DNA of 48,276 nucleotides from Bacteroidota bacterium (GCA_028873925.1 JAPPNA010000111.1:1-48276), one strand, 5' to 3'; positions 9,170 through 24,128 are shown, counted from the first letter of the stretch. Made by a program: numbers and translations. Notes: a model not told the origin generated them from the sequence alone.

Positions 9170-9245
9170 GCGTGCGGGATAGCGAGAAAGTACACCCCTA
9201 CCGGGTGGAAGAGGCGTTCAACCCGCCAGCGCCCTACTCAAAGGG

Positions 9246-9602
9246 CTAGGCCGTTTGAGCGGCCCAGATTGAGCACCAGCCATCCGGATGGATGGGGCCT
9301 TTGACCGTGGTGCAGGTGCCGCAGTTGGAACCCGCCTCAGCGATCACATAAAGCTGGCAGTTGTCACAGGTCTGGCCTTCGGTCTCTGACTGATCGGTAT
9401 ACATCAGCGTATTCCGCATCGCGATGTCGGTTTCTTCCAATCCGGTCGTGTCCATGCAGCTGAAGCCGACCTCTGCGTCCGTCGCTCCACCGCCTTCAGA
9501 AGAGCCACCACCGCCGCCGCAGCCCGTCACGGCACCTCCAGCACCCAGCACGCCCAGCAGCGACAACTGCTGCACAAATTTACGTCTTGAAAGATCGCTC
9601 AT
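9246..9602 (-). CDS. High-potential iron-sulfur protein (HiPIP), probable Tat lipoprotein
   Basis: A 118-residue periplasmic electron carrier. The N-terminus SRRKFVQ followed by a hydrophobic stretch is a twin-arginine signal. It ends in VTGC (C28), which fits a lipobox, so the mature protein is probably lipid-anchored through a flexible Gly/Ser linker (residues 29-40). The HiPIP 4Fe-4S cysteines are C79 and C82 (TCDNC), C94 or C97 (NCGTC) and C110 (GWCSIW). C49 is an extra. HiPIPs shuttle electrons between bc1-like or alternative complex III enzymes and terminal oxidases or reaction centres. Tat export fits because the cluster is inserted before export. GGAGAG upstream of the ATG is one of the few plausible ribosome-binding sites in the window. 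Confidence 0.88.
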   Translation of the reverse strand: MSDLSRRKFVQQLSLLGVLGAGGAVTGCGGGGGSSEGGGATDAEVGFSCMDTTGLEETDIAMRNTLMYTDQSETEGQTCDNCQLYVIAEAGSNCGTCTTVKGPIHPDGWCSIWAAQTA

Positions 9603-9630
9603 GATTTCTCTCCGTTTGAGTGTATAGGCC

Positions 9631-9662
9631 CAAAATTAATGCATGCGGCTTCAAGTTACAAA
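9631..9662 (-). promoter_or_regulatory. Bacteroidota-type promoter of the HiPIP gene
   Basis: On the minus strand, TTTG (9662-9659) is followed after 20 bases by TAATTTTG (9638-9631). This matches exactly the Bacteroidota primary sigma consensus of TTTG at -33 and TAnnTTTG at -7. Transcription would begin near 9625, leaving a leader of about 22 bases before the HiPIP ATG at 9602, which carries GGAGAG. No experimental support. Confidence 0.6.
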
Positions 9663-9779
9663 AGGTTGCTCAATAAATGAGCGGCATGACCCAAGCTGCA
9701 ACACGCACCGCGTGAGCGACCCGCCAAGAAAAACCGCAAGGGCGCGGACTTGGCCGAATCTATGCGGTCAAAAGGGGAG

Positions 9780-11671
9780 GTCGCAATCCCCTATTGAGCG
9801 GGGCAGGCCTTGACAGAGTTGATACAGCTCGGTCAGGGTTACCGGACTTGGTCCAAGTAGGGCACATCGCAATCCCCTATTAAGCGAGGCAGGCCCTGAC
9901 AGACGCTACACCTACAAGACCTGGTTCAAAGCCTGGCCTAACGCGTCGCAATCCCCTATTAAGCGGGGCAGGCCCTGACAGAAAGACAACATGCTAATTA
10001 AACCTTCAAAGTTTGATTTAGGGTCGCAATCCCCTATTAAGCGGGGCAGGCCCTGACAGTGGCCGTTTTTGGGCGATCGAAAACTTGAAGGATGTCGAGT
10101 CGCAATCCCCTATTAAGCGGGGCAGGCCCTGACAGTTTTGAGTTTAGACGACGGTGTGAATAATGAAGCAGTCGTCGCAATCCCCTATTAAGCGGGACAG
10201 GCCCTGACAGCCCGAATCACTGCAACACCACTACGCCACACTGGCCGCAGGTCGCAATCCCCTATTAAGCGGGGCAGGCCCTGACAGCTTGTCAAACTTA
10301 ACAGAGACGCAATGTTTTTGTTGATGGTCGCAATCCCCTATTAAGCGGGGCAGGCCCTGACAGCATTGGAGTCTCCCTTGTGGAACCCGAGGGAGGTCGT
10401 CTACAACCCCGAGTCGCAATCCCCTATTAAGCGGGGCAGGCCCTGACAGGCGCGAGATCTATGAGCTGACGGACGACACGTGCGACCTGTCGCAATCCCC
10501 TATTAAGCGGGGCAGGCCCTGACAGGGAAGGCCAAACGGAAATAGTAGTAGGCCATCCGACTTGGTCGCAATCCCCTATTAAGCGGGGCAGGCCCTGACA
10601 GGAGTGGTGTTCAACCCCGACACGATTGCCGAAGCAAGGTCTCGTCGCAATCCCCTATTAAGCGGGGCAGGCCCTGACAGAAACGGAACAAGTAGGCCAT
10701 CCGACCCGCCCCTCTAAGGGGTCGCAATCCCCTATTAAGCGGGGCAGGCCCTGACAGACGTTGCCACAACCTTTGAGGATATCCGGTATGAGCTCCCGTC
10801 GCAATCCCCTATTAAGCGGGGCAGGCCCTGACAGCGAACTGCTGGACGAAGTCTTGAAGATTGTCTACGACAAGTCGCAATCCCCTATTAAGCGGGGCAG
10901 GCCCTGACAGACTCTTAATCTTACTTCGTTACTTCTGTCTGCGTTGTACAGTCGCAATCCCCTATTAAGCGGGGCAGGCCCTGACAGCTGTTCGGGGTCG
11001 TGCGCGAGGTGGAGCAGATCCTCGAGGTCGCAATCCCCTATTAAGCGGGGCAGGCCCTGACAGGTGGGGGACGAGGAGGACGGAGATGTCCTAGAGACCT
11101 GTCGCAATCCCCTATTAAGCGGGGCAGGCCCTGACAGCCGCCCTCCCCCCTTGCCAAGACACCAAAAACCACCGCAGTCGCAATCCCCTATTAAGCGGGG
11201 CAGGCCCTGACAGACAAAATGAGATTTGTCATGCCGCGACACCTGATTGAAGTCGCAATCCCCTATTAAGCGGGGCAGGCCCTGACAGACCTGATAGAGC
11301 TCGAATCCCGGCTGAAATAGCAGGATGTCGCAATCCCCTATTAAGCGGGGCAGGCCCTGACAGGCCGCACCTCCACCCCCATGAGTTGGATGGGGTTGTT
11401 TGTGTCGCAATCCCCTATTAAGCGGGGCAGGCCCTGACAGCTACCACCAGGCTGCCCGACCGCTGAAACGGTACGTGGTGTCGCAATCCCCTATTAAGCG
11501 GGGCAGGCCCTGACAGCTGCCATTCCGACAGCATCCCCAGTGGGATGTCCCGCAAAGTCGCAATCCCCTATTAAGCGGGGCAGGCCCTGACAGATCTGAT
11601 CCTGTTGGTGAAGAACTGGACTTCCGGTGCCCACGTCGCAATCCCCTATTAAGCGGGGCAGGCCCTGACAG
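9780..11671 (-). CRISPR. CRISPR array, 25 repeats of 37 bp and 24 spacers
   Basis: Repeats begin at 9780, 9866, 9945, 10023, 10099, 10174, 10251, 10327, 10413, 10489, 10565, 10644, 10721, 10798, 10874, 10951, 11027, 11101, 11177, 11252, 11327, 11404, 11480, 11557 and 11635. On the plus strand the repeat starts GTCGCAATCCCC and ends GGCCCTGACAG. Spacers are 37-42 bp except the first and eighth, which are 49 bp. The two leftmost repeats carry substitutions, as expected at the old, leader-distal end. The sixth has one. The array is therefore read leftwards from a leader next to cas2. On that strand the repeat holds a CCCC/GGGG hairpin and ends in ATTGCGAC, the usual form of the 8-base crRNA tag left by Cas6. 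Confidence 0.98.
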
Positions 11672-11931
11672 GGCTGTTTTCAGTTACTTCGTCACCATTC
11701 CATGTGGCTGAGCCGCATGAGATAAGCCGAATATAGTGAAATCTTGGCCAAATTGATTCCATCATGCCATCCTTCGGGTCACCGGCAGCTAAATAGCGGC
11801 CCTGACCTAATGGCCAACACGCCTAGAACATACCAATTTTCCGCCGGACAGGCCGAAAGTCTTGATTCATCAGCCATTTGGTTCGTAACCAGTGGACCGT
11901 AGCGGTGACCGGAACGTTACGAATCGATTCC
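11672..11931 (-). promoter_or_regulatory. CRISPR leader region
   Basis: 260 bases between the leader-proximal repeat and the cas2 stop, without a credible gene. Repeat degeneration at the far end and the tag orientation place the array promoter and integration site here. A TATATT box occurs on the minus strand around 11735-11740 and a near-match TCAATTTG around 11750. Neither is good enough to name as the promoter. Confidence 0.7.
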
Positions 11932-12219
11932 TCATACAACAAAGACCGTTTCCTCACCTATCTCGGTGATCCCCTCCACCCTACCCGCATAGACTCGCTT
12001 CGCCTCACATGTGCGACATAGACTGTAGACCGCCACCTTATCCTCTTTCTCGTTGAGCAGTTCCTTCAGCCGCTGCAGGCACTCGTCAATCATTGACCGG
12101 CTAACAACCAACTCAAAGACGCTGTTCTGGACACGATCCCCCAGGGAATCAAGCAAATCCGCTACTTTGCGTCGACGCGAATTGTCCGATATATCGTAAG
12201 CTATGGCGTAGCGCGGCAT
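11932..12219 (-). CDS. cas2: CRISPR adaptation protein Cas2
   Basis: A 95-residue protein starting MPRYAIAYDISDN. The first strand ends in YDISD, with the conserved Asp at residue 9, followed by the R/K-rich helix RRRKVADLL and QNSVFEL, the typical Cas2 ferredoxin fold. Cas2 is the central dimer in the Cas1-Cas2 spacer integrase. The frame is open for 24 more codons upstream, but those overlap cas1. The chosen ATG leaves only 2 bases after the cas1 stop, giving tight coupling. It lies next to the leader, the usual place for adaptation genes. No ribosome-binding site is needed if translation is coupled. Confidence 0.95.
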   Translation of the reverse strand: MPRYAIAYDISDNSRRRKVADLLDSLGDRVQNSVFELVVSRSMIDECLQRLKELLNEKEDKVAVYSLCRTCEAKRVYAGRVEGITEIGEETVFVV

Positions 12220-12221
12220 TG

Positions 12222-13268
12222 TCACACGGTGTAAGCCTCCCCAAGTCTCAGCGAACGGTATTCGCGATGACCGCGTAGATGGGCTGCACACCGGTTAATC
12301 TGGTGCTGGAGAAGAACCTCAACTGCTTCCTCGCTCTTGAGTCCCGGCAGTCGCCTGTCCATGAAGGCTTCCCATTCGCGAAAAAACCGGCGCAGCCCGT
12401 TGCGGGTGAGCCGTACTCCGCCGCGCTTTTGGTCGTCCTCAAAATGCTCCATGCGCATCTGACTGCGATTGCACAACCGCAATACGAACCTGTCCACGAT
12501 AGCGGGCCGCAGTTCCTCCAATATATCCAATGCCAGGCTTGGACGACCCGAACGGCGCTGGTGCAAAAAGCCAACGTAAGGATCAAGATTTCTGGCCTCA
12601 ATCATGCTGGCCAACGAATTGGTTAGAATCACGTACCCGAACGACAACAGCGCGTTTACAGGATCAGGAGGCGGTCGCCGGGCACGACCCGCAAAACGCA
12701 GTCCTCCATCAAAGCCAGCCTGCAGGCCGCGGAAATAAGTGCGGGCACCCGCACCCTCGTACCCAAGCAAGGAGTCCAGGTCTGCCGTACCCACAATTTG
12801 CTCTTGTAGAAGGTTGAGTCGGGCTATCGCGGACCCCAGTTCCGGGTGGTTGGGACGATTTGAACGAAGAGCCGACAACACAGCGATAGAATTGTGAATC
12901 TTGCCAAGCACGAATTCTCTCGCCAGACCGACCGCCCTTTCTGGATCAGTTGCCGCCACATACTGACGCATTCTCAGGTCAGCAGTCCTTGACAGTTCCG
13001 GCACCAACCGACCCAGGAAGTCCCCATTTCGCTTAAACCATGCGACCGGAATCTTATTCTCAAGGCAGAAGCGCGTGGCATGACTTGTAATGTGGATCCG
13101 GCCTACAAGGGCAATGAGCTCAAGCCGATGCGGCTCTACCTCAATGAGCTGCCTGGTCTTGGTCGGCAATGGCCCCCTACCATCAGGATCCTTGGAAACG
13201 GTGACAACAATCGACCCCGTAGAGAAGCGGACTGTAGCACCGGGTTCTGTGATATATAAGGTGGGCAT
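12222..13268 (-). CDS. cas1: CRISPR-associated integrase Cas1
   Basis: A 348-residue metal-dependent integrase that inserts new spacers at the leader end. The N-terminal beta domain runs to about residue 95 and the alpha-helical catalytic domain follows. The metal ligands are E171 in LLGYEGAGARTYF, H236 in VGFLHQ and E251 in LALDILEELRP, so it looks active. No reverse transcriptase is fused or adjacent, so RNA spacers are not expected. The start ATG at 13268 gives the usual N-terminus (MPTLYITEPG, strand-rich). 251 bases (13269-13519) without a recognisable gene separate it from the CARF-HEPN gene. The adaptation pair may therefore have its own promoter. Confidence 0.96.
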   Translation of the reverse strand: MPTLYITEPGATVRFSTGSIVVTVSKDPDGRGPLPTKTRQLIEVEPHRLELIALVGRIHITSHATRFCLENKIPVAWFKRNGDFLGRLVPELSRTADLRMRQYVAATDPERAVGLAREFVLGKIHNSIAVLSALRSNRPNHPELGSAIARLNLLQEQIVGTADLDSLLGYEGAGARTYFRGLQAGFDGGLRFAGRARRPPPDPVNALLSFGYVILTNSLASMIEARNLDPYVGFLHQRRSGRPSLALDILEELRPAIVDRFVLRLCNRSQMRMEHFEDDQKRGGVRLTRNGLRRFFREWEAFMDRRLPGLKSEEAVEVLLQHQINRCAAHLRGHREYRSLRLGEAYTV

Positions 13269-13519
13269 TAGGCCAGTTTACTGTATCCTTGGGGGATCTT
13301 TGGAAGCCGTAGCGGACACCCCACAAACGGGAAGAGACCGGCGTAATTGATGCCCGTTGAGGCCAACGCATGTTGATGCGGACCGCTCGGGAAGGGGGCG
13401 ATGATTCCTGCCTCTGCTGCGGTTCCGCCGCTCCATCACCGGCAGCCCAACCATAGACCCTATAGATCGGCGGTTGCAAAATCGCGATGTGTCCTGCCTC
13501 CAAGTCCGAAAATTGCGCC

Positions 13520-14851
13520 TCATTGCAGGTCCCCATGGTAACCCGAAAAATCCAATGAGCGGGCTGTAGCGAGCCAGCCAGCAGCTTCGGCGCTATCCAT
13601 GACGAGTATTTCCTCCAGATTTCCAGAGATCATCCTGGCAGCACTTGAGGTAACTTTGGAGGCGTTTGCGTCAAAACCGTGGAGCAGGATCCCGAGGTTG
13701 CGATTCTTTACGTATTCCTTATCGTGCTCGCCAAATAGACACGAAGCGAGCGGATCATCAAGATCATCCAGGAATTGCGCCACTTGAAATCGTCCGGCGG
13801 TCAATGTGTCTGGCTTACTGAACCCAAGTGGCTGCTTTCTTGTTCTTTTGAGTCTCGCGTTGAGTTTCCTTACCTTCTGATCGCCAGCTGGGAGCCTTCC
13901 GCTATCATACCCATGAGCAAACAACCCCGCTTGTCCAATCAACTCCAGTACCCGATACCAACGGACACCTGCATCTTCAAAATGTCCGTCACGATATCTG
14001 CGCTCAGCATTGGCCAGAATGTCGCAGGCCAGAAGTCTCAAATAGTCGGCCATCTCCAGGTGGCTATCGCGCGGCGGTCGGTGTGCAAGTTTCTCCAGCC
14101 AATTCTCCATTGAGTCCGTAGGTCTGAAGCGTCCGGCTTCAGCTGCAGCCTCTTTATGCGCCTTAAGCAGTCCGAGTGCTCCGTCAAAGTTAAATCGGTC
14201 CCAAGCTGCGTACACTGCGGCGACATGTTGGTACGCATTCAGTTGAGAGCGCAGAGATTCCGGTAAACCATCAGTGTCTGACAACGCCTCATGGAGCATC
14301 ACACGCGCGGCTTCAAAATTTCCGCGCAGCATGAACCGTTCTGCCAAGCTGATCTGCCACCGAGCACTGGCCACAATCGTTCGGACCTCACGTATCTTCT
14401 CGGTGCCCGGAATGACCATGCCTCTTTCTCCACGCTCGCCCTCTATATATCGCAGTACGGGAATCCCCCTACTCATGCCCGCCAGCACCAGTGCTGCACT
14501 CATGGCTTTGGTTCCACGCGTGAAATCAAGGGTAATGGCACCGGGATCCACACCATCCACATCAATCAGCTTCCCAAGTACCGCATCAAAGTGCGCAAAA
14601 CTGGCATCAGCATCATTTTCATCCCCCGCGCCAGGGATCGCGCAGACTTCTACCGCCAGTCCGTCGACCCTGCGCTGAAGCTCAAATGCCTGTGCCACCG
14701 TACTCTGAGATGGCAACAATACAATCCGGTCCCAATCGCCGCTGCTAATACTCCGTTGTAGCGGCACATAGAGGGAATCCTCCAAATTCTTGGCGTTTCC
14801 TGTCCCGACTGTGAGTACGAGAATCCTGGAATCAACTGCTGTTGTTCTCAT
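13520..14851 (-). CDS. CARF-HEPN ribonuclease of type III CRISPR (Csx1/Csm6-like, TIGR02710-like)
   Basis: A 443-residue predicted ancillary ribonuclease. The N-terminal CARF (Rossmann-like) domain has LVLTVGTGNAKNLE (residues 11-24) and DFTRGTKAMSAALVLAG (109-125), the loops that bind cyclic oligoadenylate. A helical middle with YRDGHFEDAGVRWYRVLEL (286-304) resembles the TIGR02710 group. The C-terminus has NRNLGILLHG, whose R384 and H391 form R-X6-H, the HEPN RNase signature. Expected action: Cas10-made cyclic oligoadenylate binds CARF and turns on non-specific RNA cutting. Upstream frame runs to 14935, but ATG 14851 has GGAGG 6-10 bases before it and overlaps the cmr6-cmr1 stop as ATGA. 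Ring size of the activator cannot be read. Confidence 0.85.
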   Translation of the reverse strand: MRTTAVDSRILVLTVGTGNAKNLEDSLYVPLQRSISSGDWDRIVLLPSQSTVAQAFELQRRVDGLAVEVCAIPGAGDENDADASFAHFDAVLGKLIDVDGVDPGAITLDFTRGTKAMSAALVLAGMSRGIPVLRYIEGERGERGMVIPGTEKIREVRTIVASARWQISLAERFMLRGNFEAARVMLHEALSDTDGLPESLRSQLNAYQHVAAVYAAWDRFNFDGALGLLKAHKEAAAEAGRFRPTDSMENWLEKLAHRPPRDSHLEMADYLRLLACDILANAERRYRDGHFEDAGVRWYRVLELIGQAGLFAHGYDSGRLPAGDQKVRKLNARLKRTRKQPLGFSKPDTLTAGRFQVAQFLDDLDDPLASCLFGEHDKEYVKNRNLGILLHGFDANASKVTSSAARMISGNLEEILVMDSAEAAGWLATARSLDFSGYHGDLQ

Positions 14852-17088
14852 CTCCGCCTCCTTCGGCCGCGGTGGTTGCGATTGGAACGATTGGAGCGTG
14901 CGGCGGCGGATCTGGGCCTTGCCGAGCGTTCCCACTTGAACGACACTTCCTTTCGCGCTGCATGTATCGCGTGAATGAACAACTTCACCCGCTGGCCCGG
15001 AGCAGGCTCCGAGGGTGTGACACCCATGATATGACCGGTCCAGCCGCTATCAATATGCCGAGCCTTCAACCCACCTTTCTTCGTCCTTTCAACCAGGATC
15101 TCAGCTTCCACCTCGTCGCCCGGGTTGGGCATCCCTGCTGGCCTGGGAGGTTCAGGGTGACCGGCAGCTGGTGCAGGTCGTCGCCCGCTTAGCCGGGAAA
15201 TCTCTGTCTCAACCTTCGTTAGAAATCTTCGCAAAATCCCCCTGCTCGCCGACATGGATGGCAGCTTTGGAGACGGTAGTGCCAGCACTCTCACCGATAA
15301 GTTCCCGTTTGAGAGTCGGCCAAGGCTCCATAAAGCAGGAGAGGCATGCCGTTTTAGTCCATACTTACCATCGTGGGAATTGCGCGGAAGCCCCAAGACT
15401 CCACGATCATGCTTGGCAAGAGATAGGGCTGCTTCCTTCATGACCTCGCCGATCATGTGGCAGGCGTACCACGGATTCCCGCTGGCCCATTTGGTGGGTA
15501 AATCAATGTTGAATGCACCGCTAAGCGATGGTCCATATTCCTTGTCAACGGCAGCTTGGATCCCGTGCCTCCTTAGGAAGTCGTCGGCCAGACCGCTAAG
15601 CGTCTCCCATGAATCAATGCCCGGAATCTCAAGGTCCGCAAGTGAGCCGAATCCCTTCCTTGATTTTGCTCCTACCCCTCCGTGCCGGCATAACAACCAC
15701 AACGCAGCCGCGGCCTGGCTGGCTACATCATCCGCCGTGACCGGGCGAACGGGCTTTGTGTTGCCAGGAATACCGGAATTCCGTACGGTGAAGGTTACGC
15801 GCCACCGCGACCCCTCAGGGCGATACCATCTCTTCTCTGCCATCCCAAAGGAGGCATAGTAAAGACCCATCGTCTTGATGTTGCGCGATTGGGCTCGAAT
15901 GCCGTGCTGCTGAAGGAAGAGGGTAGACTCGCTAAACTGCTGCGGAGGATCGCCGGCCAAGTGCTCCAGCGCGATCTGTACCGGGCTGCCGCTTTCGGTA
16001 CTGCCCCATATCGCCGTTTCAAGCCTGCGCAAGTCTTCCAATTTCACCTTACCGGCATATATCATCCGCCACCACCATCGCAATAAACCCCGTAGCGTAG
16101 ATCCGCGCAAATCGCAATCTTTCCGCCCCTGCTCGGCACCGGCCAGAAAGGCTGGTGACACCAGTTCAAGGTTGTACTGCTGTTCATTGGGCGCACTCTG
16201 GGACTTCGCCCGCTGAGTACCGACCAGTGTAAAGCGACCATACCCTGCCGCAGTCTTGGCACCCGCCCCACTGGACACCAACGCGCTTGTGAGCCAATCA
16301 GCCGCCAGTTCGACAGCTCCATCACCAAGACGTTTGCGATCCGAAATCGCAAACTCAAACACTGTCTTGGAGCTGATGCAGAGGAAGTACACCGGTACAG
16401 GATCTTCCCAGTCACCCGGCGCGGCATTCGGGCCGCCGCCGTAGTACTGGGTGTGATGATTGTTGGTAATGTCGACTTCCAGTTTTGGCCATTGCCATGG
16501 CCATGCATCATGAAATACCAGCCTTCCCGCAGCTGATTCTTGCTTCGGAATCAGCCCATCCGGGCGCCAGCCCGGGAGCACCCTATTGGCGGATTTGTAC
16601 TTGTGAGACTCAGAATTCGTGCTACAACCGAACAATTCATCTATGCTGTGCCAAGCCTTCGCCTGGTCCGATTGCTCCTGTGCCCAAACTGTTTCGGCCC
16701 AGCTTCGCACCAGTCCCTTGATCCCGCTGCCCGGCAGGTACGCAAATCCGTAAACCGGATGCAGGCAAATGCTCGCGTTCTCCCAAGTCCCCGCCCGCGA
16801 CACATGTAGGGTAAGCGGACCGGCGGTGGTCATCTGAATGCGGCTCGCTCCAAATTGTGATAGCATGGCTGTGCGCCTTTTGATGAGGCGCTTCAGAAGG
16901 CTACTGTCTCCCCTGCATTGGACTACCTGCTTCAAGGCCTCCTTCTTCTGCTTTTTGACTTCATGGTTCGTGAAAGCGATCCTGGTGAACTTATCCAAGT
17001 GGAGTCCCGGGTTTCTTGACGGGATTGGAAATCTCCCAGCGGTCTGGCGCGTGGTCTCCGGAAGAAAAGGGCCTTCAAGGATTGCCAT
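14848..17088 (-). CDS. Cmr6-Cmr1 fusion with C-terminal S1/OB-like domain and basic tail
   Basis: A 746-residue protein that joins two type III-B RAMP subunits. Residues about 80-292 read as Cmr6, with FAYLPGSGIKGLVRSWAE, GRLVFHDAWP, DITNNHHTQYYGG, then GAGAKTAAGYGRF. Residues about 303-635 read as Cmr1, with LELVSPAFLAGAEQG, LRGSTLRGLLRWWWR, ETAIWGSTESGSPVQI, GVGAKSRKGFGSL and VLGLPRN. A Pro-rich linker (636-655) leads to GDEVEAEILVERTKKGG...GWTGHIMGV...PGQRVKLFIHAI, shaped like an S1/OB fold (656-720), and an Arg-rich tail (721-746). In standard Cmr complexes these are separate end subunits at the 3' region of the crRNA. Neither half is frameshifted. It follows cmr5 by 3 bases. Confidence 0.85.
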   Translation of the reverse strand: MAILEGPFLPETTRQTAGRFPIPSRNPGLHLDKFTRIAFTNHEVKKQKKEALKQVVQCRGDSSLLKRLIKRRTAMLSQFGASRIQMTTAGPLTLHVSRAGTWENASICLHPVYGFAYLPGSGIKGLVRSWAETVWAQEQSDQAKAWHSIDELFGCSTNSESHKYKSANRVLPGWRPDGLIPKQESAAGRLVFHDAWPWQWPKLEVDITNNHHTQYYGGGPNAAPGDWEDPVPVYFLCISSKTVFEFAISDRKRLGDGAVELAADWLTSALVSSGAGAKTAAGYGRFTLVGTQRAKSQSAPNEQQYNLELVSPAFLAGAEQGRKDCDLRGSTLRGLLRWWWRMIYAGKVKLEDLRRLETAIWGSTESGSPVQIALEHLAGDPPQQFSESTLFLQQHGIRAQSRNIKTMGLYYASFGMAEKRWYRPEGSRWRVTFTVRNSGIPGNTKPVRPVTADDVASQAAAALWLLCRHGGVGAKSRKGFGSLADLEIPGIDSWETLSGLADDFLRRHGIQAAVDKEYGPSLSGAFNIDLPTKWASGNPWYACHMIGEVMKEAALSLAKHDRGVLGLPRNSHDGKYGLKRHASPALWSLGRLSNGNLSVRVLALPSPKLPSMSASRGILRRFLTKVETEISRLSGRRPAPAAGHPEPPRPAGMPNPGDEVEAEILVERTKKGGLKARHIDSGWTGHIMGVTPSEPAPGQRVKLFIHAIHAARKEVSFKWERSARPRSAAARSNRSNRNHRGRRRRR

Positions 17089-17091
17089 GTC

Positions 17092-17502
17092 CTATTCCTG
17101 CTTGATCTCAGCCTCAGTAAATCGACCAAGCCACTGCAGGTACTTGAGTGCCTCGTCAGTAGCTCGGCGCAGGAAATCTGAATCTCCGTCAATAATGGCC
17201 TGTAACAGCGCGCTGCGATCAGCGGCACCCTTTGATCTCGCCGCCAGCTTACGATGGTCCAACAGCCAACCTGCCAGGTCTGCTAACAGCTGACTCTTTG
17301 CGTCACGGCCCTTCGCCTTGGATTTCGCGTACAGAAAGCTCAGTGCCTGCCCGAGCCCGGCAGTCTGGATCCGCACGGGAAGCCGCTTGACTTCACGTCC
17401 GTAGTCCTTGGAATAGTCGCCGCCACCCGCTTCAATAACCTCCGTGACCCTCTTCCAGGCCTCCCTTGCCCTGAGCTGATCCAGCGTACGGTGTCTGTTC
17501 AT
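17092..17502 (-). CDS. cmr5: Type III-B small subunit Cmr5
   Basis: A 136-residue all-helical protein, matching the small (Cas11-like) subunit of Cmr complexes. The N-terminus DQLRAREAWKRVTEV and the motif VKRLPVRIQTAGLGQALSFL are typical of Cmr5. Several copies line the inner filament beside Cmr4 and help hold the target RNA. It sits between cmr4 (6-base gap) and the cmr6-cmr1 fusion (3-base gap), so its dosage is set by the same mRNA. The length is ordinary for the family. No catalytic residues are expected. Confidence 0.9.
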   Translation of the reverse strand: MNRHRTLDQLRAREAWKRVTEVIEAGGGDYSKDYGREVKRLPVRIQTAGLGQALSFLYAKSKAKGRDAKSQLLADLAGWLLDHRKLAARSKGAADRSALLQAIIDGDSDFLRRATDEALKYLQWLGRFTEAEIKQE

Positions 17503-17508
17503 TTCGAT

Positions 17509-18396
17509 TCAGTCAGTCGCTCGGAAAAAACGGATGGCACAGATGCCTTTGCCTACGGTTTCGCCACCGCCGATCTGGACATGGCTTAGTTTCAAGCTCT
17601 CCAGTTTCTGCAGCAGCTCACGGCCCTCTATCGGAAACTCGGCCCGATGACTGTCCTGACAGATCACAAGCGAGTACAGCAGGGTCTCCGAAGGCAGGTA
17701 TTCTTCGTAGAACAACGCGGATGGCCGCGCTGTCTTGAGATGGTAGTCAAGCCCAATGCGAGCAACGATTTCGGTGGCATTGCTGACAAAATGGGTGAAA
17801 TCATCATCGTGAAGCACAGCCAGATGACGACAGATGCGTTTCGCTGAAGGCGTGTCCGCTGTCACGCGGTCCGCCACCCAACTGGATATCTCACCCCCAT
17901 CCTCGCTGATGGAAAACTCAAATTCTTCCAAAATTATCTTACCGCCGGCTACCAGCGGACTTGATGATGCGCAACAGGCACTGTTTGGATCAGGTCTCGG
18001 GATTTCGGGAAGTGGTCCTCCGCCCGCGATGGACAAATCACGCTGCAGTCGCTCCAGAACAGCAGGACAGGTGACCCATGCAAAGACACCTGACAATGAT
18101 CTCACCGGGAAGGCAAGAATCCGCGCATCCGAAAGAGTCAGCGCCCCGGCGTGTTCCGATGACGACCCCGTTGGCGGCCCAAACAATGCAAGCACCACGG
18201 GATTCCGGTCCGGTTTTGACCCTACCCTCCGGTTATACTCACTGCGAAGCACACCTTTAAGCGAAGATCCGGGGACAATAGGCCAGTTTGTGTGCCGCTC
18301 GCGCCGAATGGGCAGGTCAATGACCCCTAACGCAGTCCCGCCACCCGGATGCAGGCCGGTCAGGGCGTGAATAAACAGAATGGCTTGATCAGACAT
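17509..18396 (-). CDS. cmr4: Type III-B backbone RNase subunit Cmr4 (Cas7)
   Basis: A 295-residue RAMP protein that forms the repeated backbone on crRNA and cuts target RNA at 6-base steps. The N-terminus ILFIHALTGLHPGGGTALGVIDLPI is the Cmr4 signature, and D27 in VIDLPI is the expected catalytic aspartate. PIVPGSSLKGVLRSEY is the next conserved block, and HVQIGGGETVGKGI near the end is the Gly-rich RAMP loop. I start at MSDQAILF (18396). The frame runs 65 codons further, but that part overlaps cmr3 and has no family match. The start overlaps the cmr3 end by 8 bases, indicating coupled translation. Confidence 0.94.
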   Translation of the reverse strand: MSDQAILFIHALTGLHPGGGTALGVIDLPIRRERHTNWPIVPGSSLKGVLRSEYNRRVGSKPDRNPVVLALFGPPTGSSSEHAGALTLSDARILAFPVRSLSGVFAWVTCPAVLERLQRDLSIAGGGPLPEIPRPDPNSACCASSSPLVAGGKIILEEFEFSISEDGGEISSWVADRVTADTPSAKRICRHLAVLHDDDFTHFVSNATEIVARIGLDYHLKTARPSALFYEEYLPSETLLYSLVICQDSHRAEFPIEGRELLQKLESLKLSHVQIGGGETVGKGICAIRFFRATD

Positions 18397-19471
18397 AACT
18401 CCAGTTGCCCTCCAGATAGTGACCCCACCCGACCAGCGCATCTTCACGCTCAACCAAGGTGCGGGGAATGTGTGAATTCTTCGGCAGATAGTATACCGTT
18501 CCGGCCGGAACCATGAATCTGTTTGGCTTGGGTCCACCGCGCGCCAGATCCCATCCAGAAACGCCCTGCGCGTGTGAAACGGAGGCCGCAATGCACTTCA
18601 TCTTGCGCGGCTTCCAGCCATCAAACCAAGCGGGTGTCGTAAGCAGCACCAATCGCCCGTCAGCTCCTGAGACGGGCATGTTGGACCAAAAAGGCTCTCT
18701 ATGAGTCTTCAGTTCAACATACCGGCCTTCACCTCCAAACTTCATTGCCGTGCCTGATTGGCGAAGAGGCTCGATTAGTTCGTCCCCACCCGTTATCTCC
18801 GCGCAAAAAGCCGCTTCCGGCCGTAGAGCCAGCATTCCCGCGGTATAGATCATGCTCTCTGCCGCGGTCATCCTACGCGGATCAACGGCAATTCCTACCC
18901 TCCGATCAATCTCGTACAAGGTCTCCCTGGTGTGGATCTGGCGCGGACTCGGCATTCCTCCCTCAAGGAAGGCACGCAGACCCGCGGGGGCAAGGAAGCC
19001 GGACACTGATTCAACAGTCTCACGCCCATGGTGCCAGAGCGGCAACATTCCGCGCTCTGGGGGTGACCAGCCGGGGGGCCGCATGCGGCGTGGATCCATC
19101 CGAATGATCGACCTCCCGTGGGGGGGACCAGACTTGGTGATCTTGAGACTGGAGGGTACCGGAACCAGTACCTCTCCCTTCCAACTGATCCAGGGGCCAG
19201 CGATCTTCAAATGCCCTAATTCCGCTACGGGATTACCGTATTTGGCCAGTGCCCTGTCAAATGAACCGGCCTTCCTGACGCGCTCCCCGAACCGCCTAAG
19301 ACTGACTCCATGGGCCTTCAGCAACAGCGTACGAATTGCTCCTGCCAGCGTCTGAGGAGAAGGCAATCCGGAATCTGCATGGACCGACGGGCTGGGTGGG
19401 CGCGCATCACGAAAGAACAAAGTGTCCACCGGTTGAAGCGCGAGCCGAAGCGTTATTCGTTTATCCGCCAT
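18389..19471 (-). CDS. cmr3: Type III-B subunit Cmr3 (Cas5)
   Basis: A 360-residue Cas5-like subunit that caps the complex next to Cas10 and holds the 5' crRNA tag. The N-terminus PVDTLFFRDARPPSPSVHADSG followed by PSPQTLAGAIRTLLL is the Cmr3 signature (two conserved blocks at about residues 13-47). The C-terminal half contains VPAGTVYYLPKNS, another conserved family piece. It overlaps cas10 by 11 bases upstream and cmr4 by 8 bases downstream, placing it firmly in the leftward operon. No catalytic role is expected. It would bind the tag predicted from the repeat (ATTGCGAC). Confidence 0.92.
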   Translation of the reverse strand: MADKRITLRLALQPVDTLFFRDARPPSPSVHADSGLPSPQTLAGAIRTLLLKAHGVSLRRFGERVRKAGSFDRALAKYGNPVAELGHLKIAGPWISWKGEVLVPVPSSLKITKSGPPHGRSIIRMDPRRMRPPGWSPPERGMLPLWHHGRETVESVSGFLAPAGLRAFLEGGMPSPRQIHTRETLYEIDRRVGIAVDPRRMTAAESMIYTAGMLALRPEAAFCAEITGGDELIEPLRQSGTAMKFGGEGRYVELKTHREPFWSNMPVSGADGRLVLLTTPAWFDGWKPRKMKCIAASVSHAQGVSGWDLARGGPKPNRFMVPAGTVYYLPKNSHIPRTLVEREDALVGWGHYLEGNWSYV

Positions 19472-22004
19472 CCTGTCCGCGCGCTACAAATGATGCTCCG
19501 AGACATAAGTCAATGAATTCACTCAGAGGGTTCTCTGAACTCTGGGGGTACCGTCGGTACTGATGCCACCGGTGGTCCATTGATTCGGTTTTGGCCGAGA
19601 TGCCGCTGACCGTTGCCGCCTGTGACCTCCAGATCAGTCGCCTGATGGCAGCATCAACTGCAGCAGATGGCAACTGCGGGTCCGAAAGTGCGGGTGCTTC
19701 ACGCCTCAACTGATAAATCCAGCGATCCGATACTCCTCGGGCAAATTCGTCATGGACCTCCTGAAACCAAGGGGCCATTTCCCACGAAAGGCGGCAGCTG
19801 GGACGTTCGCCCGAACGACGCATAAAGCGCAGGGTGATGCAGTTTTTGCCTCTGTTCTTTGAGGATTTTTCTGCTTCACGGGCTGCGCGAAGCGCGCCGC
19901 GCAGGTCTTCCTTGTAATGGACAAAAGCGATGCCGGCTGAAAGTGTCGCTCTGCCTCCCATTGCCAGCACATGCCTGCCACCATACTCTACCCACCCCTG
20001 TGGGTCAGCATTCTGACCCCGAAATGCCTCCCTTAAAGCGATCGCACAAGGAACAGCGTTCCGGGCCGGCAGCAAGGCCAGCACATCATCACCGCCTGAA
20101 TAGATCAGCGTTCCGCAAAACCGTTCCACCACATCAGGCGCGCCAAAACTGGCAAAGTTATTCAACGATTCGCTGATGGCCGCGTGCAATGCCGGACCTA
20201 CAGGTCGTTTGGCCTGAAGGCCGTCTGAATCCAGTTGCTCAAAGTACTTGCGCAGTTTGGGGTGAACAACATCCTGGACTCGCGGAGCTCTGGCTCCACT
20301 TAGCCATAAACCCATGTCGTCCGCGTCAAGGGCCAATACGGCATAGTACTTCGGAGGGCTGCCCTGGTCCTGAATTGCACCTTGGATCTGATTCCAGATG
20401 TGGTGAGGGACTGATTCTCCGTCTTCCAGGCGGCGACGCTGATGAATCCATCTCCCGTTGAACTGACTTGACGATTCAATTCCTGTTTTCTGCAGCCACT
20501 CGCCGGCTGCAATGGTTGCGGTGTCGGGGAACCACAAATCTGCATCGTCCAGCCCCAATAGGTCACCCAGGAATCTCTCGGGCGCGAATCGCTTGCAGAG
20601 AGCCACCGCGCAGAATCGCTCCGTATTTCTAATTCGAGGAATATTCCTTGATGCAGCGGCCCAGAACTCAGCCGACTCCTGAAAATTGGATGGGCCCACC
20701 TGCTCATACGTTCCCAGCAGACTGCACTTTGGTCCGGCGGGCACATTTGCCGATACCTTCGGCACATGCCTGATAGACCGCTGCGCCGCGGCCAGCCGCG
20801 CAGAAACTTCCATCTCTGCCTGCCACCGACCCGCCCCCTTCTGATTAAATCTTGGGCGTTCTTCCGCGGGAATAACGTCCGCCATTCCGCGGACTTTCCC
20901 GGCATCAGTCCATACCTCTTCAAAGGATTCTTTTCCACCTACCAGCCTGGCCAGATCCGTTTCAGTGATTTCGGATACAGAACACACGGAGGTGGATATC
21001 TCAAAGAAACTCTCAACCTGGTAGGCCCAGTTTCCGGACCAATGCGCATCCAGTTTTGACAAATCCGGGTCCAATTCGGATCGCACTTTGCTGGCCAGAT
21101 TTCTCCAACCGTCTCGGATTGCCTCGCGACTGGCATTTTCAAACTGACGCGCAATCCTGCCCTTCTTGCCGAAGGGAACCAAGGCAACAAACCGGTTCGG
21201 TAGGGACGGGGCCTTACGAGCCTTTGGTGGTGGCTCGGGTATCAGTTTGCCAAGTCCCGGAAATTCCCGTAGCCAGAGATCCGCCAGCGGATTGCCGCGC
21301 AATGCCGGAAAAACCATGACCGTGGGCCCCAAATCACGAACCACAGGGCGAATTCCCTGAAAAATCAGCCACGACAGGAGTGCACTTCCCGACCAGAGAT
21401 CGCGCACACTCCGTGCGGCCTCAATGAAGGTCTGTACCGGGCCGAGACTGACAGACAAGACTGCATAGCCCCGCAATTTTCCCTGAGTTGCCGCCTGAAT
21501 ACCGCTTGCGATGTCCGCATGGTGTATCAGGGAATGGTCCGGGATTCGGGTGTCAGCCGGCAGCAGCGTGAAGTCGAATCCGAACCGCTCCTGCAACCTG
21601 TCAGGCAGCAGCCTCCACACCGCCAGAAATCGAATATGCGGATCCTTGGGTAACCCTTGTACGATTTCCCTGATCACCCCCTTGACAGACCTTTCATCTA
21701 CCATTCTGGCCCGCAAGGTGTGCGAAGCAGCGCTCAATGGATGAAAAACCTGCAGCGAGCCGTTTTCCACACTGACCGCACGGGCTCCGCCGCCGGCAGT
21801 AGGCATGGGTATTCGCTCTGCCTTGGCCGCGATGATGTCGGCAGGCTTGACCCGCTCCTCCATGCGCCGACTATAAGTAGCTTCACCCAATGCAGCGGAC
21901 AGGTAGCGGGCTGCACGAGACTGATGGTCAAAAACCGACAACGCTTTGTCCACCGGATCGTGCATCCAGGCTTGAAGCACTTGCCTCCAGTCTGTTTTGA
22001 TCAT
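19461..22004 (-). CDS. cas10: Type III-B Cas10 (Cmr2), HD nuclease and cyclase
   Basis: An 847-residue large subunit and signalling enzyme. The N-terminal HD domain has WMHDPVDKAL (H15, D16) and a second His cluster, DTRIPDHSLIHHAD (residues 151-164). The palm/cyclase domain has LALDADDMGLW (about 557-567), and LIYSGGDDVLALLP carries the GGDD motif (637-640) that makes cyclic oligoadenylate from ATP. A zinc-ribbon-like cysteine arrangement is not obvious. Both activities appear intact, so target RNA binding should trigger nearby DNA cleavage and second-messenger synthesis. The start at MIKTDWRQVL (22004) places the HD motif where the family has it. Two upstream Met codons (22025, 22079) are alternatives. 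It is the first gene of the leftward effector operon. Confidence 0.94.
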   Translation of the reverse strand: MIKTDWRQVLQAWMHDPVDKALSVFDHQSRAARYLSAALGEATYSRRMEERVKPADIIAAKAERIPMPTAGGGARAVSVENGSLQVFHPLSAASHTLRARMVDERSVKGVIREIVQGLPKDPHIRFLAVWRLLPDRLQERFGFDFTLLPADTRIPDHSLIHHADIASGIQAATQGKLRGYAVLSVSLGPVQTFIEAARSVRDLWSGSALLSWLIFQGIRPVVRDLGPTVMVFPALRGNPLADLWLREFPGLGKLIPEPPPKARKAPSLPNRFVALVPFGKKGRIARQFENASREAIRDGWRNLASKVRSELDPDLSKLDAHWSGNWAYQVESFFEISTSVCSVSEITETDLARLVGGKESFEEVWTDAGKVRGMADVIPAEERPRFNQKGAGRWQAEMEVSARLAAAQRSIRHVPKVSANVPAGPKCSLLGTYEQVGPSNFQESAEFWAAASRNIPRIRNTERFCAVALCKRFAPERFLGDLLGLDDADLWFPDTATIAAGEWLQKTGIESSSQFNGRWIHQRRRLEDGESVPHHIWNQIQGAIQDQGSPPKYYAVLALDADDMGLWLSGARAPRVQDVVHPKLRKYFEQLDSDGLQAKRPVGPALHAAISESLNNFASFGAPDVVERFCGTLIYSGGDDVLALLPARNAVPCAIALREAFRGQNADPQGWVEYGGRHVLAMGGRATLSAGIAFVHYKEDLRGALRAAREAEKSSKNRGKNCITLRFMRRSGERPSCRLSWEMAPWFQEVHDEFARGVSDRWIYQLRREAPALSDPQLPSAAVDAAIRRLIWRSQAATVSGISAKTESMDHRWHQYRRYPQSSENPLSEFIDLCLGASFVARGQDGG

Positions 22005-22231
22005 TCGTGATCCGGCGGTGCCCATAATGGCTGAGCAAGAAATCCAGCGGCTACATTTTCTACCGCCCCAAGATAGCATAATCAGCTCAGACGCTGCACG
22101 GGCATGGGGTCACTCTGGATGACTCTGTGGTAAGCAGCGGCCAAGGTTGCCCCCTGGTCACTGCAGCCGAATACCCTGCAGCTCCCTCATGGTTCCTAGG
22201 ATGGCAAAGAAATATCATCTACAGTTTGGGC

Positions 22232-22237
22232 TATAAT
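22232..22237 (+). promoter_or_regulatory. Possible -10 box for cas6 in the cas10/cas6 divergent region
   Basis: The 272 bases between the divergent cas10 and cas6 starts must hold promoters for both. TATAAT occurs 40 bases before the cas6 ATG, with a T-rich CTATTTTTC just after. No good -35 hexamer is spaced correctly, so this is tentative. On the other strand TATCTTGG (22075-22068) is one mismatch from TAnnTTTG and could serve cas10. Confidence 0.3.
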
Positions 22238-22276
22238 TCCCCTATTTTTCGAGCTACGGCATCAAGACGACCTCCT

Positions 22277-23161
22277 ATGCAACACCTCCAGGACTACCGG
22301 AGACTTGCCCTGACGGAGCAGATCCAGCTGATCATGAGCAAGGTCCAGGTGAGCGCATGGCGGTTGCAGCTGCACACTCCACTTGTGCACGCAACAACTC
22401 CCATGATACGCGGAGTTTGGGGGCACGCACTTAGACAAATTGACCGAAGCCTGTACGACCTGGCTTTCGCAGGCGTAAACAATACCGGGCAGAACCTGCC
22501 GCGCTATATCCTTCGACCGGCTCCACCAGACCCCCTCACCGCTCCTGCGCTGGACTGGATTCTGTTTGGTATAAATCAATCCCATGAGCCCGCTCTCTGG
22601 AGAGCATGGGATAAGGCTTGCGCCATGGGACTGGGCCCGGATCGTGTGCCGTTTCAGATCCGGAAGCGCAGATTGTTGGCACCGGACAACCTGCCAACAG
22701 CCGCAAGGGCATGGTCGCTGCCGGAAGTCACCTGGCCCCTACCCGATGACCCTGCCTCAACGCCGTGTGTCTTGAAGTGTGAGGTTCCAGTCAGATTGAT
22801 AAAGCGTAAGCAGTTAATTGCGGCACCAACGTTTGTGGACCTGATAACAGGTGCAGTGCGCAGAATTGCCGCGCTGGCTGGCCTGCCCCGTAGCGAAGCC
22901 TACGCGGACATCATGCGGGCGGCAAAATCTGTTGCCCGTCGGACACTGGCCGAGCCATGGGTCGGCGAAGACTGCCAGGTGGTTCGCTGGTCGGCAGCAC
23001 AGCAGAAAGAGGTAAAGCTCTACGGCGTAACGGGAGCCATGGCGTTGCCGAATGGCCCAGGATCCTTTTGGCCCCTCCTTGCAGCAGCTCAATGGACCCA
23101 CATCGGAAAGGGAACCGTCTTCGGGATGGGCGAGCTCCGCATTTATCCCCTGTCGCGGTAA
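22277..23161 (+). CDS. cas6: crRNA-processing endoribonuclease Cas6
   Basis: A 294-residue protein whose C-terminal half ends in WPLLAAAQWTHIGKGTVFGMGELRI, the Gly-rich loop and last strand of the Cas6 ferredoxin fold. The N-terminal part contains RLQLHTPLVHATTPMIRGVWGHALR and LPRYILRPAPPD, as in Cas6 proteins that accompany type III modules. It would cut the array transcript at the base of the repeat hairpin. The catalytic residue cannot be fixed by eye because Cas6 active sites vary. The frame opens at 22127. I prefer ATG 22277, downstream of the TATAAT at 22232. ATG 22334 (MSKVQVSAW) is also possible. It is divergent from cas10, so crRNA maturation and effector may be controlled separately. 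Confidence 0.85.
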   Translation: MQHLQDYRRLALTEQIQLIMSKVQVSAWRLQLHTPLVHATTPMIRGVWGHALRQIDRSLYDLAFAGVNNTGQNLPRYILRPAPPDPLTAPALDWILFGINQSHEPALWRAWDKACAMGLGPDRVPFQIRKRRLLAPDNLPTAARAWSLPEVTWPLPDDPASTPCVLKCEVPVRLIKRKQLIAAPTFVDLITGAVRRIAALAGLPRSEAYADIMRAAKSVARRTLAEPWVGEDCQVVRWSAAQQKEVKLYGVTGAMALPNGPGSFWPLLAAAQWTHIGKGTVFGMGELRIYPLSR

Positions 23162-23426
23162 ATGGTGGCAGCGGGCAATTGGTCTGATCGCTGATTGGTG
23201 CGATCCAGCCTTTACAATTCCCTGTTCACCCGCCCCACTACAAGGGTTGTCACATGCCAGGGTCATCATGATTCAGCCCCGCAGTTTCCCACCGGCAACT
23301 GTGCACATCGGTCAGCGCAACATCGGGCAGCATTTCTTCCGCGTTATGCTCCGTCTTCTGGACCGCGGGCAATGCCTCCACGCGCCGGATTTGCCTAATT
23401 TGCCCAAGCAACCGTACCCCCCATCC

Positions 23427-24128
23427 ATGGCACCTGCTGTGCTCATCGTCGATGACGAAGATGATATTCTGGATCTGCTGGCGTATAACCTGAAGCGGGC
23501 CAAGATGACTCCGCTCAGAGCCGGCAACGGGCTGAAAGCCCTCAAAGTGGCTCAGCAGCAGCGGGTAGACCTGATTATCCTGGATGTCATGATGCCGCAA
23601 TTGGATGGCCTGGAAACCTGCCGCCGCCTGCGACGCGATCCAAAGCTGCGGCATATTCCCATACTGATCCTGACCGCCCGGTCAGCCGAGGAAGATCATA
23701 TTGCCGGACTCGATGTGGGAGCGGACAGTTTTCTCCCCAAGTCCGCCGGAGTCGGGGTCATTATTTCGCAGGTCCGCGCCATTCTGCGGGCCGTGCACAG
23801 GCAGAGTCCCGGCGGCCCATCCAGTATTCTCACCGCTAAGGACCTGAGGATCGACCAGGCCTGCTATCTGGTGCATAAAGGCGAGGGCGAAAACCGTGTT
23901 GAAATTCGACTGCCGCGCAAGGAGTTTGAATTGCTGCACTTTCTGGCCTCCGCACCTGGCGTGGTTTATCGCCGAACAGATATTCTCACCCAGATCTGGG
24001 GGGATGATGTGCTGGTATCAGACCGCACGGTGGATGTACACGTACGGAAAATCCGCAAGAAACTGGGCAAGAAGTACATTGAGACTGTCAAGGGAGTCGG
24101 GTACCGCTTCAGGGATCCGGCTGATTGA
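23427..24128 (+). CDS. phoB: PhoB-like response regulator (receiver + winged helix)
   Basis: A 233-residue OmpR/PhoB-class transcription factor. The receiver domain has the acidic pocket DDEDD (residues 9-13), phospho-acceptor D53 in ILDVMMPQLDG and T83 in ILTARS. K105 falls in SFLPKSAGVG, where most members have a TKPF-type sequence. The C-terminal winged helix has PRKEFELLHFLASAPGVVYRR, SDRTVDVHVRKIRKKLG and a final KGVGYRF. Together with the downstream kinase it likely senses phosphate or envelope state. The start is ATG 23427, since the longer frame back to 23052 runs into cas6. 265 bases between cas6 and this start hold nothing recognisable. Confidence 0.88.
   Translation: MAPAVLIVDDEDDILDLLAYNLKRAKMTPLRAGNGLKALKVAQQQRVDLIILDVMMPQLDGLETCRRLRRDPKLRHIPILILTARSAEEDHIAGLDVGADSFLPKSAGVGVIISQVRAILRAVHRQSPGGPSSILTAKDLRIDQACYLVHKGEGENRVEIRLPRKEFELLHFLASAPGVVYRRTDILTQIWGDDVLVSDRTVDVHVRKIRKKLGKKYIETVKGVGYRFRDPAD

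What the first reader, a model, noticed from the sequence alone, without database searches (positions are those of the whole stretch)
14848..17088. Cmr6 and Cmr1 fused in one 746-residue protein with an S1/OB-like tail
The two end subunits of a Cmr complex are separate genes in the well-studied systems. Here Cmr6 (about 80-292) and Cmr1 (about 303-635) are in one frame, and a third part shaped like an S1/OB RNA-binding domain (656-720) and an Arg-rich end (721-746) have been added. A fusion fixes subunit order and 1:1 stoichiometry at the 3' end of the crRNA, and the tail could hold target RNA or the crRNA end. Type III-D and III-E systems show that Cas7 fusions can change function. I do not know this particular arrangement as a described type.
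Basis: partly seen in the sequence, partly recalled or inferred. Interest (0 to 1): 0.72.

Follow-up and report, generated by a model that had tools for sequence, protein, structure and literature searches.

The report
Fused Cmr6-Cmr1 CRISPR cap with S1 tail
Two proteins that normally sit side by side at one end of an RNA-targeting CRISPR machine are made here as a single protein with an added domain shaped like an RNA-binding S1 domain; the same joined protein occurs in bacteria of about 15 phyla, and because the join itself was already reported in a cyanobacterium it is a real, widespread variant rather than a new kind of system.

Summary
The minus-strand ORF 17088-14848 encodes 746 aa: Cmr6 (TIGR01898, E 2e-33), Cmr1 (TIGR01894, E 2e-14), and a C-terminal domain predicted with good confidence to be an S1-type OB fold (Z up to 9.9 to S1 domains), ending in 12 Arg of 26 residues. 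It is the last effector gene of a complete III-B locus, and the genome has no other Cmr1 or Cmr6. About 60 homologous single-ORF fusions were recovered from about 15 phyla; 40 of 55 with a complete 3' end carry the tail. The tail is under purifying selection. A shared origin of the fused systems is not rejected. In some Planctomycetes the same tail sits on an unfused Cmr6, so it is a module of the cap.

Most likely this is a one-piece cap of an ordinary Cmr complex: Cmr6 caps the Cmr4 filament, Cmr1 holds the crRNA 3' end (its RNA-contact W/W/R residues are kept), and the S1 tail adds RNA grip beside the 3' seed. The tail's role is inferred. The fusion itself is not new: a Microcystis Cmr1-6 was purified in 2025 as part of a five-subunit complex. 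New variant of a known kind.

The parts
14848..17088 (-). cmr6-cmr1-S1 fusion gene, 746 aa, stop codon at 14850-14848
16219..17016 (-). Cmr6 part (residues 25-290): Cas7-like subunit that caps the Cmr4 filament
   Evidence: TIGR01898 E 2.2e-33; clade profile 25-290; Z 16.3 to Cmr6 3x1l_H
15166..16179 (-). Cmr1 part (residues 304-641), joined by a linker of about 13 residues; W338, W339 and R477 align with P. furiosus Cmr1 W38, W39 and R154
   Evidence: TIGR01894 E 1.9e-14; clade profile; Z 25.1 to A. fulgidus Cmr1 9l7c_A; alignment
14929..15123 (-). C-terminal S1-type OB-fold domain (residues 656-720)
   Evidence: conserved and under purifying selection
14851..14928 (-). Arg-rich disordered end (residues 721-746, 12 Arg of 26)
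17092..17502 (-). cmr5
   Evidence: TIGR01881 E 1.2e-13
17509..18396 (-). cmr4 (Cas7 backbone; likely start at the ATG of MSDQAIL), keeps an Asp in GVIDLP that I take, from general knowledge, to be the cleavage residue
   Evidence: TIGR02580 E 1.6e-69
18389..19471 (-). cmr3
   Evidence: TIGR01888 E 1.6e-34
19461..22079 (-). cas10/cmr2 with an N-terminal HD motif and the GGDD cyclase motif
   Evidence: TIGR02577 E 2.2e-65; motifs
13520..14851 (-). CARF-HEPN ancillary nuclease (TIGR02710/Csx1-like); its ATG overlaps the TGA of the fusion gene (ATGA)
12222..13268 (-). cas1
   Evidence: TIGR00287 E 8e-76
11932..12219 (-). cas2
   Evidence: TIGR01573 E 9e-16
9780..11671 (.). CRISPR array, 25 repeats of 37 nt, spacers of 37-49 nt (most 38-42)
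22127..23161 (+). cas6 (true start probably internal)
   Evidence: PADLOC Cas6 E 6e-50; Pfam CRISPR_Cas6 E 1.7e-12

Best explanation
This is the cap subunit of an otherwise ordinary, complete and probably active type III-B (Cmr) complex. Cmr6 and Cmr1, usually two chains, are one chain in the physical order they have in the complex: Cmr4 filament, then Cmr6, then Cmr1. Shown here: the domain identities, the operon, the absence of any other Cmr1 or Cmr6 in the genome, the S1/OB fold by prediction, and conservation and purifying selection. Inferred from known Cmr complexes: Cmr6 closes the Cmr4/Cmr5 filament and Cmr1 cradles the crRNA 3' end, where target pairing starts. Inferred with less support: the tethered S1/OB domain with its Arg-rich end adds sequence-independent RNA affinity at this exposed 3' end, either to catch and hold target RNA beside the seed or to cover the protruding crRNA 3' end. 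When target is bound, Cas10 would make cyclic oligoadenylates that switch on the CARF-HEPN RNase encoded next.
For: Family hits for both halves. The Cmr1 part has Z 25.1 to A. fulgidus Cmr1 and the Cmr6 part Z 16.3 to Cmr6. RAMP (PF03787) hits in the whole genome are only cmr4 and the two halves of this protein (genome 98.6% complete). The Pf Cmr1 RNA-contact residues W38/W39/R154 (named in PMC5965380) align with W338/W339/R477 and are invariant or nearly invariant in 38 homologues. The locus is complete, and Cas10 keeps both HD and GGDD. The tail matches S1 domains as a fold and has omega 0.09-0.31 in four close pairs. The tail also occurs at the C terminus of unfused Cmr6 in Planctomycetes, as expected for a module that acts at the cap. 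Published work puts the crRNA 3' end and the seed at Cmr1/Cmr6 and says target binding needs both (PMC8376896). A Microcystis complex with a Cmr1-6 fusion assembled as five subunits and gave 10-fold phage resistance (PMC11855584).
Against: No experiment on this protein or this clade. The tail's sequence is not detectably related to S1: no Pfam hit for the window's tail, one relative at E 0.025 below cut-off, and hhalign probability 5%. OB folds also bind proteins. Some fused homologues lack the tail or carry other small C-terminal sequences, so it is not essential to the fusion.
Confidence: 0.72

Rival explanations
1. The tail does not bind the complex's own RNA. It is a protein- or ribosome-docking OB domain that brings the complex to translating phage mRNA or to a partner such as the CARF-HEPN nuclease.
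For: The closest folds are S1 domains of translation and transcription factors (eIF2-alpha, NusA, bS1, Spt6), some of which dock on proteins. The fusion gene overlaps the CARF-HEPN gene and the two are usually neighbours.
Against: The conserved first loop is Lys-rich (EKTKKGGWKA) and the end is Arg-rich, which fits RNA better. Several tail-bearing loci have no CARF-HEPN hit beside them.
Confidence: 0.17
2. The fusion is only a gene-order accident with no functional meaning beyond co-expression; the tail is a loosely tolerated addition.
For: cmr6 and cmr1 are adjacent and separate in the Lentisphaerota, Kiritimatiellota and Verrucomicrobiota loci, so a simple stop loss could fuse them. Tails are variable or missing in part of the clade.
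Against: The fusion persists across about 15 phyla, and the tail is constrained (omega 0.09-0.31) and present in 40 of 55 complete fusions.
Confidence: 0.08
3. The fused systems are a separate subtype with changed function, comparable to III-E single-protein effectors.
For: Foldseek and VIA also align the protein with Cas7-11 (Z about 12). The fused loci group together in the Cas10-Cmr3-Cmr4 tree.
Against: All other Cmr subunits, Cas10 active-site motifs, Cas6 and adaptation genes are present and separate. The Cas7-11 match is the shared RAMP fold and is far weaker than that to Cmr1.
Confidence: 0.03

Closest known systems
Microcystis aeruginosa FACHB-524 Cluster 4 Cmr1-6 fusion (PMC11855584)
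   Same: Cmr1 and Cmr6 domains in one protein of a III-B locus with cas10, cmr3, cmr4 and cmr5; no separate cmr1. Shown to co-purify as a five-protein complex.
   Different: No S1/OB tail is mentioned in the passages read. A Nostoc fusion (643 aa, L002) ends without one. The Nostoc member is distant from this clade.
Canonical III-B Cmr complexes (P. furiosus, A. fulgidus, T. thermophilus, S. islandicus)
   Same: Subunit families, predicted folds of both halves, RNA-contact residues in Cmr1, Cas10/Cmr4 logic.
   Different: Cmr1 and Cmr6 are separate genes, cmr1 often first in the operon, without this C-terminal S1-like domain.
S1/OB-domain fusions in III-D-like type III systems (PMC3150331)
   Same: An S1/OB domain attached to a type III CRISPR protein.
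   Different: Different host proteins (Csx10/all1473-type systems). Homology to this tail was tested only against TIGR03986 members in the same order, which did not match.
Cmr6 with a CSD domain, PDB 9arw/9z7q
   Same: A Cmr6 named 'CSD domain-containing' in a solved structure; the cold-shock domain is an OB fold.
   Different: About 85 residues precede the Cmr6 match, so any extra domain is N-terminal. Cmr1 is a separate chain, named Cmr1-MntA in 9z7q.

Membership tests
Type III-B CRISPR-Cas | Cas10/Cmr2, Cmr3, Cmr4, Cmr5 and Cmr6 in one operon | tested here: met
   All above NCBIfam cut-offs
Type III-B CRISPR-Cas | Cmr1 present | tested here: met
   TIGR01894 54 bits against cut-off 29, residues 308-483; no other copy in the genome
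Type III-B CRISPR-Cas | CRISPR array and crRNA processing gene | tested here: met
   25 repeats; Cas6
Type III-B CRISPR-Cas | Target-RNA-dependent cOA synthesis and periodic target cleavage | not testable with these tools
   GGDD and HD motifs in Cas10 and an Asp in Cmr4 are present; activity needs experiment
Cmr1 family | RNA-contact residues W38, W39, R154 (P. furiosus numbering) | tested here: met
   Align with W338, W339, R477; invariant or nearly so in A2
S1 RNA-binding domain | Five-stranded OB fold of the S1 type | tested here: met
   Prediction only: pLDDT 81; Z 8.0-9.9 for the 50 best matches, dominated by S1-domain proteins
S1 RNA-binding domain | Sequence match to S1 (PF00575) at curated cut-off | tested here: not met
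   No match for the window's tail; a relative's tail E 0.025, 15.4 bits against cut-off 22; hhalign to S1 repeats of the same genome 5%. So S1-like fold, not filed as a Pfam S1 member
S1 RNA-binding domain | Binds RNA | not testable with these tools
   Needs a binding assay
Cmr6-Cmr1 fusion clade (this report) | Fused systems form one clade | tested here: inconclusive
   One clade not rejected: p-AU 0.67 without and 0.52 with Nostoc; quick LG+G4 tree with long branches; the free tree needs 3 changes
Type III-E (Cas7-11) | Single effector polypeptide without Cas10 | tested here: not met
   cas10, cmr3, cmr4 and cmr5 are separate genes

The most novel reading that the evidence does not exclude
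A broad, largely unremarked III-B branch has turned the crRNA 3'-end cap into a one-chain Cmr6-Cmr1 module with a tethered S1-like domain that acts as a target-RNA catcher at the 3' seed. The domain is also carried by unfused Cmr6, so it would be a general add-on that changes seed affinity or crRNA 3' length of Cmr complexes.
Probability: 0.35. Interest if true: 0.6.

Novelty: new variant of a known kind. Interest (0 to 1): 0.42.

Why it matters
How the Cmr1/Cmr6 end sets crRNA length and seed recognition is not settled, and the 3' trimming step is described as uncharacterised in PMC8376896. A natural one-chain cap with a separable RNA-binding-like domain, found with and without the tail and with and without the fusion, makes those questions directly testable by domain deletion and splitting. 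A single-chain cap could also simplify reconstituted Cmr complexes used for RNA detection. Tools that expect separate cmr1 and cmr6 genes can miss Cmr1 in such loci, as the Microcystis authors reported for PADLOC.

Tried and rejected
A plus-strand reading of the coordinates was rejected (many stops). An assembly-error fusion was rejected (same fusion in many independent assemblies). A second Cmr1 or Cmr6 elsewhere in the genome was not found. The single-protein genome-contig scan gave nothing; the alignment scan worked. No relative was found in viral contigs. The tail profile against PDB sequences gave only chance CD4 matches. Pfam, NCBIfam and PADLOC scans of tails alone gave no significant family. 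The tail in TIGR03986 (III-D-like) proteins of the same order was not found. Rfam found nothing in 9000-24000. No paper on PDB 9arw or 9z7q was found in the library. L087 and L090, first counted as unfused, are truncated contigs and were removed from the count. L098 is counted among the 62 'fused' ORFs by a short hit but has a separate cmr1, so the better figure is 61 (54 with a complete 3' end).

Full report
What is there. The coordinates hold one open frame on the minus strand, 17088 to 14848, of 746 residues without an internal stop. NCBIfam assigns residues 88-287 to Cmr6 (E 2.2e-33) and 308-483 to Cmr1 (E 1.9e-14), both well above the curated cut-offs. PADLOC and the Pfam RAMP model agree. 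Profiles built from the clade extend the two parts to 25-290 and 304-641, with a linker of about 13 residues (median spacing 15 in the homologues). No family model matches the rest.

Setting. The gene is the last effector gene of a complete III-B locus on the minus strand: cas10 (HD and GGDD motifs), cmr3, cmr4, cmr5, the fusion, a CARF-HEPN nuclease, cas1, cas2 and an array of 25 repeats; cas6 lies divergently upstream. The fusion starts 3 bases after cmr5, and its stop overlaps the start of the CARF-HEPN gene as ATGA. In the whole genome the only RAMP-model hits are cmr4 and the two halves of this protein, so the fusion is the only source of both subunits that could be found.

Folds. AlphaFold2 with 38 homologues gives mean pLDDT 81 and pTM 0.77. 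The Cmr1 part matches A. fulgidus Cmr1 at Z 25.1 and P. furiosus Cmr1 at Z 21.1; the Cmr6 part matches Cmr6 at Z 16.3. P. furiosus Cmr1 W38, W39 and R154, listed as RNA-binding residues in PMC5965380, align with W338, W339 and R477 here (allowing for a construct offset of six; residues read), which are invariant or nearly so across 38 homologues. The tail, modelled alone from 19 homologues, is a five-stranded barrel (pLDDT 81). The 50 best VIA matches have Z 8.0-9.9 and are dominated by S1-domain proteins: eIF2-alpha, NusA, bS1, Spt6, Tex, exosome Rrp4. Sequence alone does not show this relation, so I call it S1-like by predicted fold. Beyond it, 723-746 is disordered and Arg-rich.

Distribution. 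Full-length fusions occur in about ten genomes of the same order. A scan of GTDB genome contigs with the alignment returned 71 relatives; 62 are single ORFs with both parts by profile (61 after removing L098), from about 15 phyla including Rhodothermota, Planctomycetota, Acidobacteriota, Pseudomonadota, Bacillota, Binatota, Latescibacterota and Elusimicrobiota. The scan used motifs of the fusion itself, so it favours relatives and gives no frequency. Where the contig is long enough, the gene order is cas10-cmr3-cmr4-cmr5-fusion, often with CARF-HEPN, cas1 and cas2 behind it. Of 55 with their 3' end in the contig, 40 have the same tail; others have no tail or other short C-terminal sequences. 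In four close species pairs the tail has omega 0.09-0.31, against 0.15-0.46 for the Cmr6-Cmr1 body, so it is kept by selection.

Origins. On a Cas10-Cmr3-Cmr4 tree the fused loci cluster. Holding all fused loci together is not rejected, with or without the Nostoc fusion (p-AU 0.67 and 0.52); the tree is a quick one with long branches, and this does not prove one origin. Plausible stages exist: adjacent separate cmr6 and cmr1 in Lentisphaerota, Kiritimatiellota and Verrucomicrobiota loci (L095-L098), and a Defluviicoccus type with cmr1 in front plus a second cmr1-like gene right after cmr6 (L091, L092). In Planctomycetes, canonical operons with cmr1 in front carry the same tail on an unfused Cmr6 (L148-L151). 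The tail is therefore a module of the cap, separable from the Cmr1 fusion.

How it most likely works. In Cmr complexes the Cmr4/Cmr5 filament is capped by Cmr1 and Cmr6, the crRNA 3' end lies there, target pairing begins at a 3' seed, and target binding needs both subunits (PMC8376896; PMC5965380). The fusion joins the two in their physical order and forces 1:1. With the RNA-contact residues of Cmr1 kept, ordinary cap function is expected. The S1-like tail and its Arg-rich end would sit at the exposed 3' end of the guide and add RNA affinity; whether to target or to the crRNA 3' overhang cannot be decided here. The rest would follow the usual III-B route: Cmr4 cuts target RNA, Cas10 makes cyclic oligoadenylates, CARF-HEPN degrades RNA.

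What is known. A Cmr1/Cmr6 fusion in Microcystis aeruginosa was named Cmr1-6, purified with Cas10, Cmr3, Cmr4 and Cmr5, and gave 10-fold resistance to T4 in E. coli (PMC11855584). S1/OB domains forming fusions in III-D-like systems were noted in 2011 (PMC3150331). A solved Cmr6 (9arw) is named CSD-containing and carries about 85 residues before the Cmr6 match. I found no text on the S1-tailed Cmr6-Cmr1 form or on its spread, but most subscription papers and all preprints are outside the library. I therefore rate it a new variant of a known kind, real and well supported in anatomy, with the tail's role open.

Noticed in passing
L148-L151 (Planctomycetes): Canonical cmr1-cas10-cmr3-cmr4-cmr5-cmr6 operons with short Cas10 (about 560-650 aa) in which Cmr6 alone carries the S1-like tail.
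   Followed up: partly
L091 2555-10805, L092 2831-10910: Defluviicoccus III-B loci with two Cmr1-like genes: one in front of cas10 and a second directly after cmr6 that resembles the fused clade's Cmr1 half far more strongly.
   Followed up: partly
L095-L098: Lentisphaerota, Kiritimatiellota and Verrucomicrobiota III-B loci with separate but adjacent, overlapping cmr6 and cmr1, the likely pre-fusion order.
   Followed up: partly
L057, L068, L069, L070, L071, L073, L075, L078 C termini: Fused homologues with other, unrelated-looking small C-terminal sequences in place of the S1-like tail; this position seems to be a place where small domains are swapped.
   Followed up: no
L129 (G365:C432:1-2549): Remnant of a second fusion gene: only the end of the Cmr1 part and the S1 tail remain, next to what looks like repeated array sequence.
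   Followed up: no
L008/L035 and L018/L042 (one genome, G004): One Rhodothermales genome carries two different fused III-B loci about 0.36 Mb apart.
   Followed up: no
L002 360-4831 (Nostoc plasmid pTCL26-01_B): The cyanobacterial fused III-B locus has its cas10 split by an ISKra4-family transposase gene and a SAVED-domain gene as neighbour.
   Followed up: no
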